Positions 8,711 through 13,638 of a stretch of 64,000 nt of DNA are shown here, in pieces. Within the stretch, counting starts at the first letter, position 1, and every line of letters starts with the position of its first letter. The DNA comes from Bacillota bacterium (lineage in GTDB: Bacteria > Bacillota > Dethiobacteria > DTU022 > UBA8154): assembly GCA_012728375.1 (NCBI GenBank), contig JAAYFF010000004.1, positions 1-64,000 of the forward strand. The letters are read 5' to 3'. The notes under the pieces were generated by a model. The model did no database searches. It was given only the letters and a program-made list of their open reading frames with translations, and was not told the origin of the DNA. The position numbers were made by a program, and so were the translations under genes.

Positions 8711-9841
8711 TTACCAGAAAAAGCGTTGTCCTTCCCGTAATTTTTTATCCGGACTAAGAACTACATTTTCGGAAGTATCCAGGTTTTCTACCAGGTAATA
8801 GCCGTCTTTTTCCCCCAATATTTGCACTTCACGAAAAGAAATATAGCCCTTTTCGATAATATAAACGCCCTTTTTGCCGTCTTTTTCCAGTAATGTGCTC
8901 TTGGGAATCATATTCCCCTCAAGTCGCTCGTAAACAATTTCAGCCCGGCACCAACGCTGATTATAAAAATTTTCCATAAACTGGTTAATAGCCCACGTTA
9001 CCTTTATGACTTCCCCGTCTTTTTCCATTTCCACCCGCTCGCCCATAACCGGACAATTAGGAGAAAAAGAAAAATATAAAACAACCTGGGCTTGTCCGGC
9101 AATAATTTCTTCCGCGGAAGCGGGGAGAACAGCGCTAAAGTACCAGGTGTAATTATTAATAATTCTTAAAAGAGGTGCAGAACGGCTTACTTTTTGACCA
9201 TTGCACATATACTGATCCTGCGAGGGCTTTCTATTGAACTCTTCCTCCGTGAGATAGGGAAAGGTTGAATTTGGACCATACCTTTCCCATCCGTCGATTT
9301 TTAAGCTTATCAGGCCGGCCTGTGAATTAAAAACAATTGTTTCATCGTTCTCCGGGAAAAGAGAAAGGCTGCTTTTTTCATCCAAGGATTGGCTCCCCAA
9401 AAACCAGTCTTTAAATCTCGATAAATAATCTGCCCCATTCTCATCACCGCCGGCAGCACCGACATCGGCTTCTTCCGGGGGAGAAGGGCTTATTCTGGCC
9501 AGCTCCGCCCCTACCGGCACCCTGACGCCTTCTTCAACAAGATAGTCAATAAAACCGGACCTGGGGGAAAAAATTATTGTTTCGTCAAAAGTTATTAATC
9601 CTGAAACGGGATAAGTTAGCTCCAGCGAACCCTCTCCGGCAATAATCGTTTGGATGGATTTCTGGCCGAATACTCCCCAAACCCATCCGGTTAAGATCTG
9701 GCCCAGCAAAAAAAGGGCGAGGAAAAGCAGAATAAAAAAAAGAGGTTTTTTGCCGGGGGTTAATTTTTTTTTTTGTTCTTGCCCCCCGCCTTTAATTACT
9801 TTAAAATCTACGGGTTTCGGCTTCTTAAACTCTCTTTTCAT
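8711..9841 (-). CDS. HlyD-like membrane adaptor protein, orphan
   Basis: This 376-residue protein has a basic cytoplasmic tail rich in Lys/Pro (about 1-32), one membrane segment at about 33-55, and a long external domain. The sequence after the membrane segment (LTYPVSGLITFDETIIFSPRSG..., then VRVPVGAELARIS) resembles the biotinyl-lipoyl-like half-motifs of HlyD-family membrane fusion proteins. No transporter partner is encoded nearby. It lies between pgeF and yggS in what looks like the same operon. In a monoderm cell it may be a cell-envelope protein instead of an export adaptor. Fold assignment is from pattern only; function is not known. Confidence 0.7.
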   Translation of the reverse strand: MKREFKKPKPVDFKVIKGGGQEQKKKLTPGKKPLFFILLFLALFLLGQILTGWVWGVFGQKSIQTIIAGEGSLELTYPVSGLITFDETIIFSPRSGFIDYLVEEGVRVPVGAELARISPSPPEEADVGAAGGDENGADYLSRFKDWFLGSQSLDEKSSLSLFPENDETIVFNSQAGLISLKIDGWERYGPNSTFPYLTEEEFNRKPSQDQYMCNGQKVSRSAPLLRIINNYTWYFSAVLPASAEEIIAGQAQVVLYFSFSPNCPVMGERVEMEKDGEVIKVTWAINQFMENFYNQRWCRAEIVYERLEGNMIPKSTLLEKDGKKGVYIIEKGYISFREVQILGEKDGYYLVENLDTSENVVLSPDKKLREGQRFFW

Positions 9842-9844
9842 TTT

Positions 9845-10675
9845 TTACCTAACTCCGCAATTCCTCAAAAAAATAATACCCATATGGCTGCCGGTTGCAG
9901 TGCCCCCGGCGCGGCGGTATGAATAAAACAAATTGTCGTCGCACTTTGTACAAAAATCATTGGTAAAAATATGCTTAGGTTTTATCCCTTCTTTGAGCAA
10001 TATATTCCCGTTAGATGCCTTGAGATCAAAGTAATAACGCCCGGCCGTACCCCCTGGGTTTAGGACCATCTCCTTTTTCCATGGGGAAAGGTGACAGCTT
10101 TCAATAACCTCATCCCCCACCTCATAACAACAGGGACCAATGGAAGGACCCATGGATACTTGTATTTTTTGACAATCTGCAGCGAATTTTTCCTTCATGA
10201 GGTGGACGACCCGTGCGACGATGCCTTTGCATGTCCCTCTCCACCCTGCATGCGCGATACCCACTACAGGAATAGACGGTTCCAAAAAAAACACCAGGAG
10301 GCAATCGGCACTAAAGGCTCCCAGCACAGCTTCCCGCTCCGCTGTTATCAAAGCATCCGTTGCGGGGAAAACCCTTTTGCTTGCAGAAATTTCTTCGCTC
10401 CCGATGATAGCAACCCCTGTCCCATGAACCTGTTCGCCGCAAAAAAGGTCGGTGGTTTTCTTCCCCCAAATTGCCAAAAACCTCTCCCTGTTCTCTACAA
10501 CTTTTAACGGGTCTTCTCCTCCTTTAAAACCCAAATCAAAAGAGAAGTTTTTCCCAACACCGGTTCCCCCGAGACGGGATGAAAAACCGTGACCGCAGAT
10601 ATTCATTTTTTCCCATAAAGGCAAGGAAAAAAACGGTATTTTTTCTCGTTCTGTCAAGCGAATTTTTTCCTGCAT
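9845..10675 (-). CDS. pgeF: Peptidoglycan editing factor PgeF (YfiH/YlmD, laccase-like family)
   Basis: This member of the YfiH/LACC1 family is a zinc-binding enzyme. In E. coli the family has been linked to removing mis-incorporated Ser from peptidoglycan precursors, and other members act on purine nucleosides. The metal and catalytic signatures are visible: QVHG with H84, ADC with C125, HAGWRG with H142, and GPSIGPCCYEVG. The 276-residue length is normal. AGGAGGAATTC precedes the ATG, giving a strong start. In Bacillus the gene ylmD lies beside ylmE (yggS); here the HlyD-like gene has been placed between them. The substrate in this organism is not known. Confidence 0.9.
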   Translation of the reverse strand: MQEKIRLTEREKIPFFSLPLWEKMNICGHGFSSRLGGTGVGKNFSFDLGFKGGEDPLKVVENRERFLAIWGKKTTDLFCGEQVHGTGVAIIGSEEISASKRVFPATDALITAEREAVLGAFSADCLLVFFLEPSIPVVGIAHAGWRGTCKGIVARVVHLMKEKFAADCQKIQVSMGPSIGPCCYEVGDEVIESCHLSPWKKEMVLNPGGTAGRYYFDLKASNGNILLKEGIKPKHIFTNDFCTKCDDNLFYSYRRAGGTATGSHMGIIFLRNCGVR

Positions 10676-10693: not shown

Positions 10694-12550
10694 TCAATCA
10701 TACGGGAAAAAAGTGTTTATTGATACATAGCCAATATCAGAGTCGGAAAGTCGCCGCAAAAAATCAGCGGAACCGTCCGGGTCAAGACCGGGCATCATAA
10801 ATACCTTGCTGGAGCAACCAGCCAGACAATAGCGGTGCAGCTGCCCTTCAAAAGCAATTTTTTTATCCAGGCCTTCATCCTCCTGGAAGAGGACAAAACC
10901 TGTACTGTAAAGTTCCTTATCGGTAACGCCTTTTATAATACCGAATTCTTCTCTGTCGCGCTCCGTAAAATACTGGAGACGCCTGTCATTGGAAACGCAG
11001 GACAGGGCAAAATTCAAATCGTATTCCTCACAAAAAGAAAGAACTCTTTTCGACATATGGTCTAAAATCCTCACGACAAGCCTTAAATTCTCTTCATTAT
11101 TGTCTCTCTTCTCAGGCAGAAGCAAACGGAGAACTTCCGGCAAACCAATAAAGCCAATCGTCATAACCCCATTCTTTAAAGCTTCCCTGATACTGTCTTC
11201 CGGAGTGAGGTTTTCGCTGCCCATATAAAAGCCTTTCCCCATTACAGAAGGAAGATCACGGCACCTAAGCGCAGTTAAAACTTCAAAACGGTGTAAAAGC
11301 TGGCGAACCCCCAGGCGCAACAAGCGATCGAGTTCGACGAAGAATAGCTCCTCATCCCGGGTTGTCAGTGCAAGACGGGGAAGATTGATCGTTAAAGAAC
11401 AAATATTTCCCCTTCCCTCCCCTCCTGCCCTTCCGTGCCTGTTTTCAGCAACCCTGAGCCCGCCGGCAAAATAACAAGCCCCGTTTCCAAGAGAGTTGAA
11501 CGAAGTATCCATAAAGCAAAACACAGGGTTGCCGCTTCGAAGTGCCGAGCGTAACGCCAGCAAAAACAAGTCGTAATTCGGATCATTAGGCAAAAAGTTA
11601 ACGCCTTTTCTCAATGTAAAAATAATTCTCGGCATATTAGAATGATCCTTTTGGCTTAACAGTTCATTCAAAAAAAACTGTGAACACAACCTTCCCTCTT
11701 TACTCGAATCCAGACCCAGACCCAGACTCAATTTAATATTATGTTCACAGGAAAAAAGGGAAAGGTTCCTAAAATAACGCAAAAAGCTTCTTAAACTATC
11801 TTCAACCAGGGCATGTTCGCCGCCTTTTTTGAAGCGGCGTATTAATTCTCCAAGAAAGCGGTCAAGAAAAGGCAAATGTTGTTCGCCGAATAAGTCGTTC
11901 AAGCTGCTTTGGACAACCCCGGCAAAATTCATCAGAGTCGAATAAAAACCGATTGGAGAAAATTTTTCCAACAGGCCGGGATTCTTTTTCAGCAAACCGG
12001 GCAAATCGATTTGCAGAGAGTCCAACGTTTTACTGTAATACCCAAGCTGATGAATATGGAAACTTCCCCGCCGGTGCGCTTGAGCTATATCGGGAGGAAG
12101 CAAATTATCCAAATAATATTTTTGGCTGGCTGCCAGAGCAATTTTATGCATCTTCTGGGCGGGCGAATAACTGTATTCTTCTGTTCTTTTATTGCCCTCC
12201 ACCAGGATATCCTTAACGACATCCATTAGTTCGGATTTGGCCTCTCGAATACGCGTTCTTTTATCCCTGTATAAAATATAAGCCTTGGATGTCCGGGCAT
12301 GCCCCTTTTCAATAAGTATTTTTTCCACAACATCCTGTATTTCCTCTACAGTAGGTATTAATCCCGGAACCCTTGTAGCCGAAAGATATTTAATAACTTC
12401 TTCCGTTAACTCTTCTGCCAGGGAGTAGTTTTCTCCTCCTACAGCCCTGGCAGCTTTAAAAATGGCCTCGGTAATTTTCTTTTTATCAAAAGGTGCAATT
12501 CTTCCATCTCTCTTTCTAATTTCCGGAAAAGGAATATCTTCTTTTGTCAA
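10694..12550 (-). CDS. NrdD-like protein with ATP-cone, lacking glycyl-radical and active-site residues
   Basis: This 618-residue protein is homologous to anaerobic (class III) ribonucleotide reductase NrdD. Residues 11-105 form an ATP-cone starting IRKRDGRIAPFD. The NRDD core includes FHIHQLGYYSKTLDSLQIDL (164-183), GRGNICSLTINLPRLAL (379-395) and SDIGYVSIN near 604. NrdD normally has Cys in the first motif (Cys before LQ) and in the finger loop (GCRTRV); here these are Ser178 and Gly363 in FAGGLRV. After SDIGYVSIN the protein stops, so the Cys4 zinc ribbon and the RxxGY glycyl-radical motif are missing. Only 18 bases separate it from pgeF, so no hidden C-terminus exists. The start is TTG with AAGGGTGAT upstream. 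It is probably not a reductase; a nucleotide-sensing role is speculation. Confidence 0.85.
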   Translation of the reverse strand: MTKEDIPFPEIRKRDGRIAPFDKKKITEAIFKAARAVGGENYSLAEELTEEVIKYLSATRVPGLIPTVEEIQDVVEKILIEKGHARTSKAYILYRDKRTRIREAKSELMDVVKDILVEGNKRTEEYSYSPAQKMHKIALAASQKYYLDNLLPPDIAQAHRRGSFHIHQLGYYSKTLDSLQIDLPGLLKKNPGLLEKFSPIGFYSTLMNFAGVVQSSLNDLFGEQHLPFLDRFLGELIRRFKKGGEHALVEDSLRSFLRYFRNLSLFSCEHNIKLSLGLGLDSSKEGRLCSQFFLNELLSQKDHSNMPRIIFTLRKGVNFLPNDPNYDLFLLALRSALRSGNPVFCFMDTSFNSLGNGACYFAGGLRVAENRHGRAGGEGRGNICSLTINLPRLALTTRDEELFFVELDRLLRLGVRQLLHRFEVLTALRCRDLPSVMGKGFYMGSENLTPEDSIREALKNGVMTIGFIGLPEVLRLLLPEKRDNNEENLRLVVRILDHMSKRVLSFCEEYDLNFALSCVSNDRRLQYFTERDREEFGIIKGVTDKELYSTGFVLFQEDEGLDKKIAFEGQLHRYCLAGCSSKVFMMPGLDPDGSADFLRRLSDSDIGYVSINTFFPYD

Positions 12551-12617
12551 AGGATCACCCTTCCAGCAACATCCATTTTATCCGTTAGCCTGTCCCTATC
12601 TTCGAAAGAGTATAAAA

Positions 12618-12637
12618 TGCTTGCTGCAAAGCAAGCA
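12618..12637. repeat. 7-bp inverted repeat in the yprB/nrdD-like divergent gap
   Basis: TGCTTGC and GCAAGCA flank the loop TGCAAA in the 244-base divergent gap between the NrdD-like gene and the yprB-like gene. On the minus strand the repeat is followed by TTTTAT, so it could act as a weak attenuator, or it could be a binding site. No clear promoter was found in the gap. Confidence 0.4.
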
Positions 12638-12794
12638 CTATGGCATCTCCTGGGCAGTTATCACTTTTTAATTATATACCAACCCAAAGATCATGTCCAG
12701 TTTAACAACTTTTGCTTTTTCCCGCAACAAAGCAGGTTACGGGGAAAATAAAGCGAAATGATCTTTATCGTCTGAACTGAAAGGGGTAAAGCTT

Positions 12795-13619
12795 GTGCTG
12801 GGAAATACTTTTTTACATTTATCAGGCATCGGGCCCAAAAGAGAAAGACAGCTCTGGGAGAAAAATATTTTAAACTGGGATACACTTGAATATGCTTTAA
12901 AAACCGGGGAAATTAAACATTCCTCCATACTGGAAAAAGAGCTGTCGCTCTCCCGCCGGAACCTTGAAGAAAAGAATGCCGCTTTTTTTTCAGAACGCCT
13001 TCCTGCTGATGCACCGTGGCGCCTTTTAAACGACTTCCGCCATCTGGCAGTATACCTTGATATTGAAACCACCGGGCTGGGCAAGGACGACCATGTTACG
13101 ACAATTTCTATATATGACGGCAAAGAACTCAAATATTATGTCTGGGGAGATAATCTGCAAAATTTTTTAGAAGATATTAACAAATACAAGTTAATTATTA
13201 CATATAACGGCAAATGCTTTGATATACCATTTTTGGAAAATCATTTTCAGACGCGCTTCAAGCACGCTCATCTGGATCTCCGCTATGTACTAAAAAAACT
13301 TGGTTATACGGGCGGCCTGAAAAGCTGCGAAAAACAAATGGGAATTCAAAGAAAAGACCTGGATGGTGTCAACGGTTACACAGCTGTTTTGCTCTGGCAG
13401 GAATATATTAAAAACAAAAGTACCCGGGCGCTGGAAACCCTGCTCTCTTATAATATGGAAGACACCATAAACCTGGAGAAGCTGGCCCATCTCTGTTACA
13501 ATAGGTTAATAATGCAGACCCCTTTTAAAAATCAAATCCTGCCTGTCCCAGAGGAGCCAAGCCTTCCTTTTAAGCCGGATCTTCAATTACTGCAAAAAAT
13601 CTTACTAAAAAGGAACTAA
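12795..13619 (+). CDS. Ribonuclease H-like exonuclease domain protein, YprB-like
   Basis: This is the only coding gene on the plus strand. It has 274 residues with a DEDDy exonuclease (RNase H-like) fold: D89 and E91 in LDIETTG, N138 and D143 in TYNGKCFDIPF, and Y218 with D222 in YNMEDT. Residues 8-25 (LSGIGPKRERQLWEKNI) resemble a helix-hairpin-helix that could bind DNA or RNA. The family is related to YprB of Bacillus, whose substrate is unknown. The start is GTG with AAAGGGG eight bases upstream. It converges on ylmC and diverges from the NrdD-like gene. It interrupts an otherwise single-strand cluster, so it was probably inserted. Confidence 0.82.
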   Translation: MLGNTFLHLSGIGPKRERQLWEKNILNWDTLEYALKTGEIKHSSILEKELSLSRRNLEEKNAAFFSERLPADAPWRLLNDFRHLAVYLDIETTGLGKDDHVTTISIYDGKELKYYVWGDNLQNFLEDINKYKLIITYNGKCFDIPFLENHFQTRFKHAHLDLRYVLKKLGYTGGLKSCEKQMGIQRKDLDGVNGYTAVLLWQEYIKNKSTRALETLLSYNMEDTINLEKLAHLCYNRLIMQTPFKNQILPVPEEPSLPFKPDLQLLQKILLKRN

Positions 13620-13638
13620 ATACAGGAATCCCTTTGCT

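What the first reader, a model, noticed from the sequence alone, without database searches (positions are those of the whole stretch)
10694..12550. NrdD homologue with intact ATP-cone but no radical or active-site residues
The sequence shows an NRDD fold with Ser178 where the first active-site Cys is expected, Gly363 where the finger-loop Cys (GCRTRV) is expected, and a stop right after SDIGYVSIN, so the zinc ribbon and glycyl-radical motif are absent. Only 18 bases separate it from pgeF, which rules out a displaced C-terminus. No nrdG activase lies nearby. The frame is otherwise open over 618 codons with a good start, which argues for selection and not decay. Known biology: ATP-cones sense ATP/dATP. 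Inference: this may be a nucleotide-sensing or regulatory pseudoenzyme in a cell-wall/sporulation neighbourhood.
Basis: partly seen in the sequence, partly recalled or inferred. Interest (0 to 1): 0.72.

Follow-up and report, generated by a model that had tools for sequence, protein, structure and literature searches.

The report
Dead ribonucleotide reductase keeping its sensor
In one order of anaerobic bacteria, the gene for an oxygen-sensitive enzyme that makes DNA building blocks has lost its catalytic parts at least three separate times, while the bacteria keep it and preserve its ATP/dATP-sensing domain, which suggests it now works as a nucleotide sensor instead of an enzyme.

Summary
Window 10694-12550 (-) encodes a 618-aa class III ribonucleotide reductase (NrdD) homologue with an intact ATP-cone. 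It has Ser178 and Gly363 at the two active-site Cys positions, no zinc ribbon or glycyl-radical domain, and ends 18 bp before pgeF.

It is neither a recent truncation nor a stray paralogue. It is the positional orthologue of catalytic NrdD in an ancestral nrdR-nrdD-nrdG-pgeF locus shared across the class. The dead form is present in 22 of 23 genomes of its family (10 genera) and in a second family. Related dead or dying forms arose separately in another family of the order. Dead lineages have also lost the substrate-binding motifs, nrdG and, mostly, nrdR and its boxes.

The ATP-cone is as conserved as in active enzymes (79% versus 79% identity), while barrel constraint is relaxed (barrel/cone dN ratio 3.8 versus 1.1). 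dN/dS is about 0.1, so it is not a decaying pseudogene. The host has another complete NrdD and a class II NrdJ.

Best explanation: a pseudoenzyme kept as an ATP/dATP-sensing, oligomerising regulator, most plausibly of the remaining RNR system. Sensing and client are inferred. I found no precedent for a bacterial NrdD pseudoenzyme; herpesvirus R1 pseudoenzymes are the nearest analogue.

The parts
10694..12550 (-). Truncated, catalytically dead class III RNR homologue (618 aa, TTG start, stop 10694-10696)
   Evidence: TTG start supported by the conserved N-terminus in orthologues (MTxxxxPFxEIRKRDGR) and an upstream GGAAGGGTGAT
12254..12523 (-). ATP-cone (residues 10-99); together with the start of the linker it keeps K13 R14 D15 R17 Q72 Y91 Y94 R98 R102, equivalents of the nucleotide-contacting residues of P. 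copri and S. thermophilus NrdD
   Evidence: residue roles from PMC11226230 and PMC12662201
12017..12019 (-). Ser178 codon, replacing the first active-site Cys (C171 of P. copri NrdD)
   Evidence: Ser in 20/20 family orthologues, Cys in 35/35 active orthologues
11462..11464 (-). Gly363 codon, replacing the thiyl-radical Cys of the finger loop (C416)
   Evidence: N/S/D/T/G in the family, Cys in 35/35 active orthologues
11273..11353 (-). Helix 400-426, the best-conserved long barrel segment (0.85 identity in the dead family, 0.78 in active); equivalent to P. copri NrdD 458-485, part of the ATP-cone docking surface of the dATP tetramer
   Evidence: docking from PMC11226230
12671..12699 (-). Promoter-like TGGACA-17-TATAAT (11/12), possibly the gene's own promoter, about 120 bp upstream of the start
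   Evidence: consensus match only; the number of sites is not above shuffles
12551..13638 (.). Slot where nrdR lies in sister families and in part of this family; here nrdR is gone and an RNase_H_2-domain gene (12795-13619, +) stands instead
9845..10675 (-). pgeF, downstream neighbour with its own Shine-Dalgarno sequence; nrdG lies between the two genes in active lineages

Best explanation
The gene is the in-place descendant of a catalytic class III RNR (MGCR-type finger loop) from an ancestral nrdR-nrdD-nrdG operon. While another complete class III system (a double-cysteine NrdD and an NrdG2-type activase elsewhere) and a class II NrdJ could supply deoxynucleotides, it lost its radical domain, both catalytic cysteines, the substrate-binding elements and its activase (shown from sequence). 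What was kept under full constraint is the ATP-cone, its fourth helix and linker, the first core helix and one outer barrel helix (shown). I infer that it works as an ATP/dATP-responsive switch: dATP binding compacts the cone and makes cones pair with each other or dock on the outer helix, as in S. thermophilus and P. copri NrdD, and the oligomer acts on another protein instead of on its own active site. The most likely client is the remaining RNR system. A class II NrdJ that lacks its own ATP-cone is the only other RNR found in every kind of dead lineage (inferred, weaker).
For: Catalytic loss is complete and family-wide. Synteny shows an in-place orthologue. The gene tree gives at least three independent losses: f1+f4, G033 and G050. 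dN/dS is 0.09-0.14, like neighbouring genes. Cone identity within the dead family is 0.788 against 0.794 in active enzymes, while the barrel falls from 0.76-0.86 to 0.52-0.61. Barrel/cone dN ratio is 3.78 dead, 1.10 active, 2.13 in the fresh losses. The nucleotide contacts of the cone are kept in the dead lineages apart from one Tyr-to-His in one genome. dATP-driven cone dimerisation or docking is documented for class III. No ATP-cone was found at any class II NrdJ of the order. In G033 and G050 the dead NrdD is the only ATP-cone protein found in the genome. The complete second NrdD is in the same genome.
Against: No binding, expression or phenotype data. The client is a guess: no fusion and no linkage to nrdJ. 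The connector from cone to barrel (residues about 119-128), by which cones control class III enzymes, is not conserved. The barrel still carries purifying selection that a cone-only sensor would not need. The core dimer helices have lost constraint (0.95 to 0.39 for 199-215), so the oligomeric state is uncertain. The genomes are mostly draft assemblies without names.
Confidence: 0.6

Rival explanations
1. Slowly decaying pseudogene: catalysis became redundant and the ORF is a relic still open by chance.
For: nrdG and recognisable NrdR boxes are lost in the dead lineages examined and nrdR in most; barrel constraint is relaxed; G033, G063 and G050 look like stages of erosion.
Against: Open frame in all 19 complete family genes over 52-79% identity; dN/dS about 0.1; cone dN/dS 0.00-0.08; 47 of 90 cone columns invariant, as many as in active enzymes.
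Confidence: 0.08
2. Regulatory subunit of the second, catalytic NrdD in the same genome, forming mixed cone-cone oligomers.
For: Both carry ATP-cones; most family genomes have both; cone dimerisation is the dATP-inhibited state in S. thermophilus NrdD.
Against: The two NrdDs are only about 30-39% identical and lie on different contigs; G033 and G050 have no second NrdD yet keep the dead one; the core dimer helices have lost constraint.
Confidence: 0.17
3. Functional replacement of NrdR: a nucleotide sensor that controls RNR gene expression through a partner.
For: NrdR is absent from the assembled locus in most dead lineages and no box was recognised in those examined, while active lineages keep both.
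Against: No DNA-binding domain; NrdR survives beside the dead gene in six family genomes; NrdR loss may simply follow decay of the operon.
Confidence: 0.1
4. A still catalytic enzyme that uses other cysteines or is completed by a separately encoded radical domain (as YfiD does for pyruvate formate-lyase).
For: Class III finger loops vary (PMC9669993); the family keeps an invariant Cys575.
Against: Cys575 is equally conserved in active enzymes next to their own catalytic cysteines; the substrate contacts NxN, HxHD and ATPAEG are lost; no activase at the locus.
Confidence: 0.02

Closest known systems
Class III anaerobic RNR NrdD with ATP-cone (Prevotella copri 8p23/8p28, Streptococcus thermophilus 9d3x; PRK07111-like)
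   Same: Same fold (best Foldseek hits 8p2c, 8p28), homologous ATP-cone with the named nucleotide contacts, descended from the NrdD of an nrdR-nrdD-nrdG operon
   Different: No thiyl-radical or strand-A Cys, no NxN flap, no HxHD Asp, no ATPAEG loop, no zinc ribbon, no glycyl radical, no adjacent NrdG
NrdR (Zn-ribbon plus ATP-cone repressor)
   Same: ATP-cone as conserved sensor; neighbour in the ancestral operon
   Different: No DNA-binding Zn ribbon here; the cone is fused to a relaxed RNR barrel
Betaherpesvirus R1 pseudoenzymes (UL45, M45; PMC5469499)
   Same: Large RNR subunit that lost catalysis and is kept for another role
   Different: Viral homologues of the class I large subunit with a role in host signalling; whether an ATP-cone is retained there was not tested
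Leeuwenhoekiella blandensis NrdB with transplanted ATP-cone (5olk)
   Same: Shows that an ATP-cone can regulate RNR from outside the catalytic subunit (PMC11226230)
   Different: The cone sits on the radical-generating subunit of the same enzyme, not on a dead NrdD

Membership tests
Catalytic class III RNR (NrdD) | NRDD barrel fold | tested here: met
   Pfam NRDD 228.5 bits; AF2 pLDDT 81.5, Foldseek E 5e-38 to P. copri NrdD
Catalytic class III RNR (NrdD) | Thiyl-radical Cys on the finger loop and Cys on strand A | tested here: not met
   Gly363 and Ser178; neither Cys present in any family member with sequence at those columns
Catalytic class III RNR (NrdD) | C-terminal zinc ribbon and glycyl-radical motif (RRITGYL in the active orthologues) | tested here: not met
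   Stop before it; 18 bp to pgeF
Catalytic class III RNR (NrdD) | Substrate-binding elements: NxN flap, HxHD, ATPAEG-type loop | tested here: not met
Catalytic class III RNR (NrdD) | Dedicated activase NrdG at the locus | tested here: not met
   No nrdG in the window or in any f1 locus fetched; present beside active orthologues
ATP-cone nucleotide sensor | ATP-cone with basic hairpin (KRDGR) and Tyr/Arg contacts on helix 4 | tested here: met
ATP-cone nucleotide sensor | Binds ATP/dATP and changes conformation or oligomeric state | not testable with these tools
   Needs calorimetry and mass photometry or size-exclusion chromatography
Pseudoenzyme | Homologue lacking catalytic residues but maintained by selection | tested here: met
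   Catalytic loss with dN/dS 0.09-0.14 across 10 genera
NrdR repressor | N-terminal Zn-ribbon DNA-binding domain | tested here: not met
   The cone begins at residue 10; no zinc ribbon precedes it

The most novel reading that the evidence does not exclude
The dead NrdD is a stand-alone allosteric subunit that supplies an ATP-cone in trans to a class II RNR (NrdJ) that has none: in each dead lineage a catalytic RNR was converted into the activity regulator of another RNR class.
Probability: 0.18. Interest if true: 0.88.

Novelty: new variant of a known kind. Interest (0 to 1): 0.64.

Why it matters
Ribonucleotide reductases make the precursors of DNA, and NrdD genes are routinely annotated as enzymes. 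Here a whole family of bacteria, and separate lineages of a sister family, carry an NrdD that cannot be one, yet its ATP/dATP sensor is kept as strictly as in the active enzyme. If it is a regulator, the ATP-cone can outlive its catalytic host and act on other proteins. The parallel losses give ready-made intermediates (G063, G050, G033) and active sister genes to test how an enzyme becomes a sensor.

Tried and rejected
Recent truncation or assembly error: rejected, the losses are shared by orthologues in 10 genera. Stray paralogue moved into a cell-wall cluster: rejected, the locus is the ancestral nrd operon. Displaced C-terminus nearby: rejected, no room before pgeF. Alternative active-site cysteines: none at catalytic positions. 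NrdR-regulated gene: boxes (13-15 of 16 matches) occur upstream of nrdR in all active operons that could be scored, but no score above shuffles was found in the dead loci examined; two dead loci (G011, G016) could not be scored because no nrdR start was recognised. A phylum-level DNA pattern for the Cys-to-Ser motif hit only this genus among 399 sampled genomes; it is narrow (it also misses G011) and does not exclude other dead NrdDs. Conservation of the two cone-docking helices together is only suggestive (463 of 10,000 random window pairs equal or exceed it); the first helix carries the signal. The scan of genome contigs gave one close relative, a Bacillota MAG (DUNV01000020.1) whose contig length equals that of G002:C141. 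The name of the order was not resolved; Dethiobacteria was considered from memory and not verified. One extraction script chose wrong frames (replaced) and one crashed (replaced).

Full report
What is there. The ORF at 10694-12550 (-) is a 618-aa protein with an ATP-cone (residues 10-99) and an NRDD barrel (127-615). It scores below all NCBIfam NrdD equivalog cut-offs. Against P. copri NrdD, Ser178 stands at the strand-A Cys and Gly363 at the finger-loop Cys; the chain ends before the zinc ribbon and the radical Gly. Also missing are the NxN flap, the Asp of HxHD and the ATPAEG loop that hold the substrate in class III enzymes (functions from PMC11226230). The gene has a plausible ribosome-binding site and a near-consensus promoter about 120 bp upstream; the promoter scan as a whole found no more sites than shuffles.

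The genome does not need it for catalysis. A second NrdD with intact SMCCRLRL and RVVGFYRP motifs lies on contig C83. An NrdG2-type activase is on C61, and a class II RNR is on C41. No NrdR was found in the genome.

Orthologues. All 71 species held for the order were searched. In family f1, 22 of 23 genomes carry the gene; the exception is a 79%-complete assembly. The 19 complete copies (window included) all end at the same place. Position 178 is Ser in 20 of 20, and position 363 is never Cys. In families f2, f3 and f5 the orthologue is full length, with all catalytic motifs intact in each of 34 complete genes, apart from the exceptions below. Twenty loci from other families of the class keep the catalytic motifs wherever the sequence reaches them.

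Same place, different fate. In the active lineages the usual order is ylmC-nrdR-nrdD-nrdG-pgeF-hlyD-yggS. In f1 the same neighbours remain but nrdG is gone; nrdR survives in six genomes, is a fragment in one and is missing from the assembled locus in most others. In the window genome an RNase_H_2-type gene stands in the nrdR slot. NrdR boxes were found upstream of nrdR in all active operons that could be scored, but none above shuffles in the dead loci examined, including four f1 loci that keep nrdR. The window gene is therefore the positional orthologue of the operon's NrdD, and the cell-wall/sporulation neighbourhood is ancestral.

Repeated conversion. Family f4 (G025) has a 575-aa frame with Ser at the first Cys, no finger Cys and an intact ATP-cone. 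In f3, G033 has both Cys replaced by Ser and is truncated at about the same point, while its congener G037 is active. G050 has the first Cys replaced by Ser, has lost the substrate motifs and has an altered radical motif. G063, a congener of G033, keeps the zinc ribbon but loses the radical-Gly loop and abuts pgeF; its middle part is not assembled. G033 and G050 lack nrdR and nrdG at the locus; in G063 nrdR is absent upstream and nrdG absent downstream. The gene tree joins f1 with f4 (support 0.89), puts G033 beside G037 (0.97) and G050 inside the active f3 cluster, so there are at least three losses.

Selection. dN/dS between close f1 pairs is 0.09-0.14, like pgeF, yggS and ylmH. Mean identity of the cone within dead f1 equals that within active enzymes (0.788 and 0.794; 47 of 90 invariant columns in both). 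The barrel drops from 0.76-0.86 to 0.52-0.61. The barrel/cone dN ratio is 3.78 in dead pairs, 1.10 in active pairs and 2.13 between the fresh losses and active relatives; some pairs share a species, so these numbers are descriptive. The cone residues named as nucleotide contacts in P. copri and S. thermophilus NrdD are kept, apart from one Tyr-to-His in one genome. Cone helices 3 and 4, the first core helix and helix 400-426 keep or gain constraint. The segments from 199 to 266, which hold the core dimer and specificity-site helices (mapping recalled from T4 NrdD, not tested), and the triphosphate loop lose it.

Structure. AlphaFold2 with 27 sequences gives mean pLDDT 81.5. The best PDB matches are P. 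copri NrdD in its tetrameric states. In the dATP tetramer the cone docks on residues 458-485 and 550-569; the first of these aligns with helix 400-426 here, the best-conserved barrel segment of the dead family. This is suggestive only: D408-R409 is invariant in active enzymes too, and the two docking helices together exceed random pairs of windows only moderately.

Mechanism. Shown: the residues required by known class III chemistry are absent, and the cone is the part under undiminished selection. Inferred: it binds ATP/dATP and switches its conformation or oligomeric state, as catalytic relatives do. Inferred more weakly: it acts on another RNR. NrdJ is the common candidate. The census of ATP-cones over the order found them only at nrdD and nrdR places, none at a class II nrdJ, and in G033 and G050 the dead NrdD is the only ATP-cone protein found. 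Both assemblies are incomplete (92% and 87%).

Novelty. Searches of the open-access library found no NrdD pseudoenzyme; subscription papers are mostly not covered. One survey of 1,375 class III sequences reports the strand-A Cys in 92.6% (PMC9669993), so losses may exist unrecognised. Herpesvirus R1 homologues are the nearest known RNR pseudoenzymes. I rate this a new variant of a known kind.

Noticed in passing
window 12795-13619 (+): RNase_H_2-domain gene (274 aa), on the opposite strand, where nrdR lies in relatives; no similarity found at this locus in the other family genomes fetched.
   Followed up: partly
window 12618-12637: Perfect 7-bp inverted repeat TGCTTGC-TGCAAA-GCAAGCA between the promoter-like site and the start of the dead gene; possible operator or leader hairpin.
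   Followed up: no
L092, L093, L094, L095 (active nrdD of G044, G027, G047, G067): nrdD frames of 1222-1253 aa with an intein-sized insertion between positions equivalent to about 257 and 275; many class II nrdJ frames of the same order are about 1100 aa, also intein-sized.
   Followed up: no
L041, L044, L048 (nrdR of G001, G012, G008): NrdR copies beside the dead nrdD have weak ATP-cone scores (50-59 bits, against mostly 60-77 in active operons) and no recognisable NrdR box upstream; NrdR itself may be eroding or rewired.
   Followed up: partly
L131 and L132 (G063): Intermediate state: ATP-cone and zinc ribbon kept, radical glycine loop replaced by IRRRGAGPGS and a stop 17 bp before pgeF; the middle of the gene is missing from the assembly.
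   Followed up: partly
window 8711-9841 (-): HlyD-like putative membrane fusion protein (HlyD_2; TIGR02828 below cut-off) between pgeF and yggS, conserved at this place in nearly all loci of the order.
   Followed up: no
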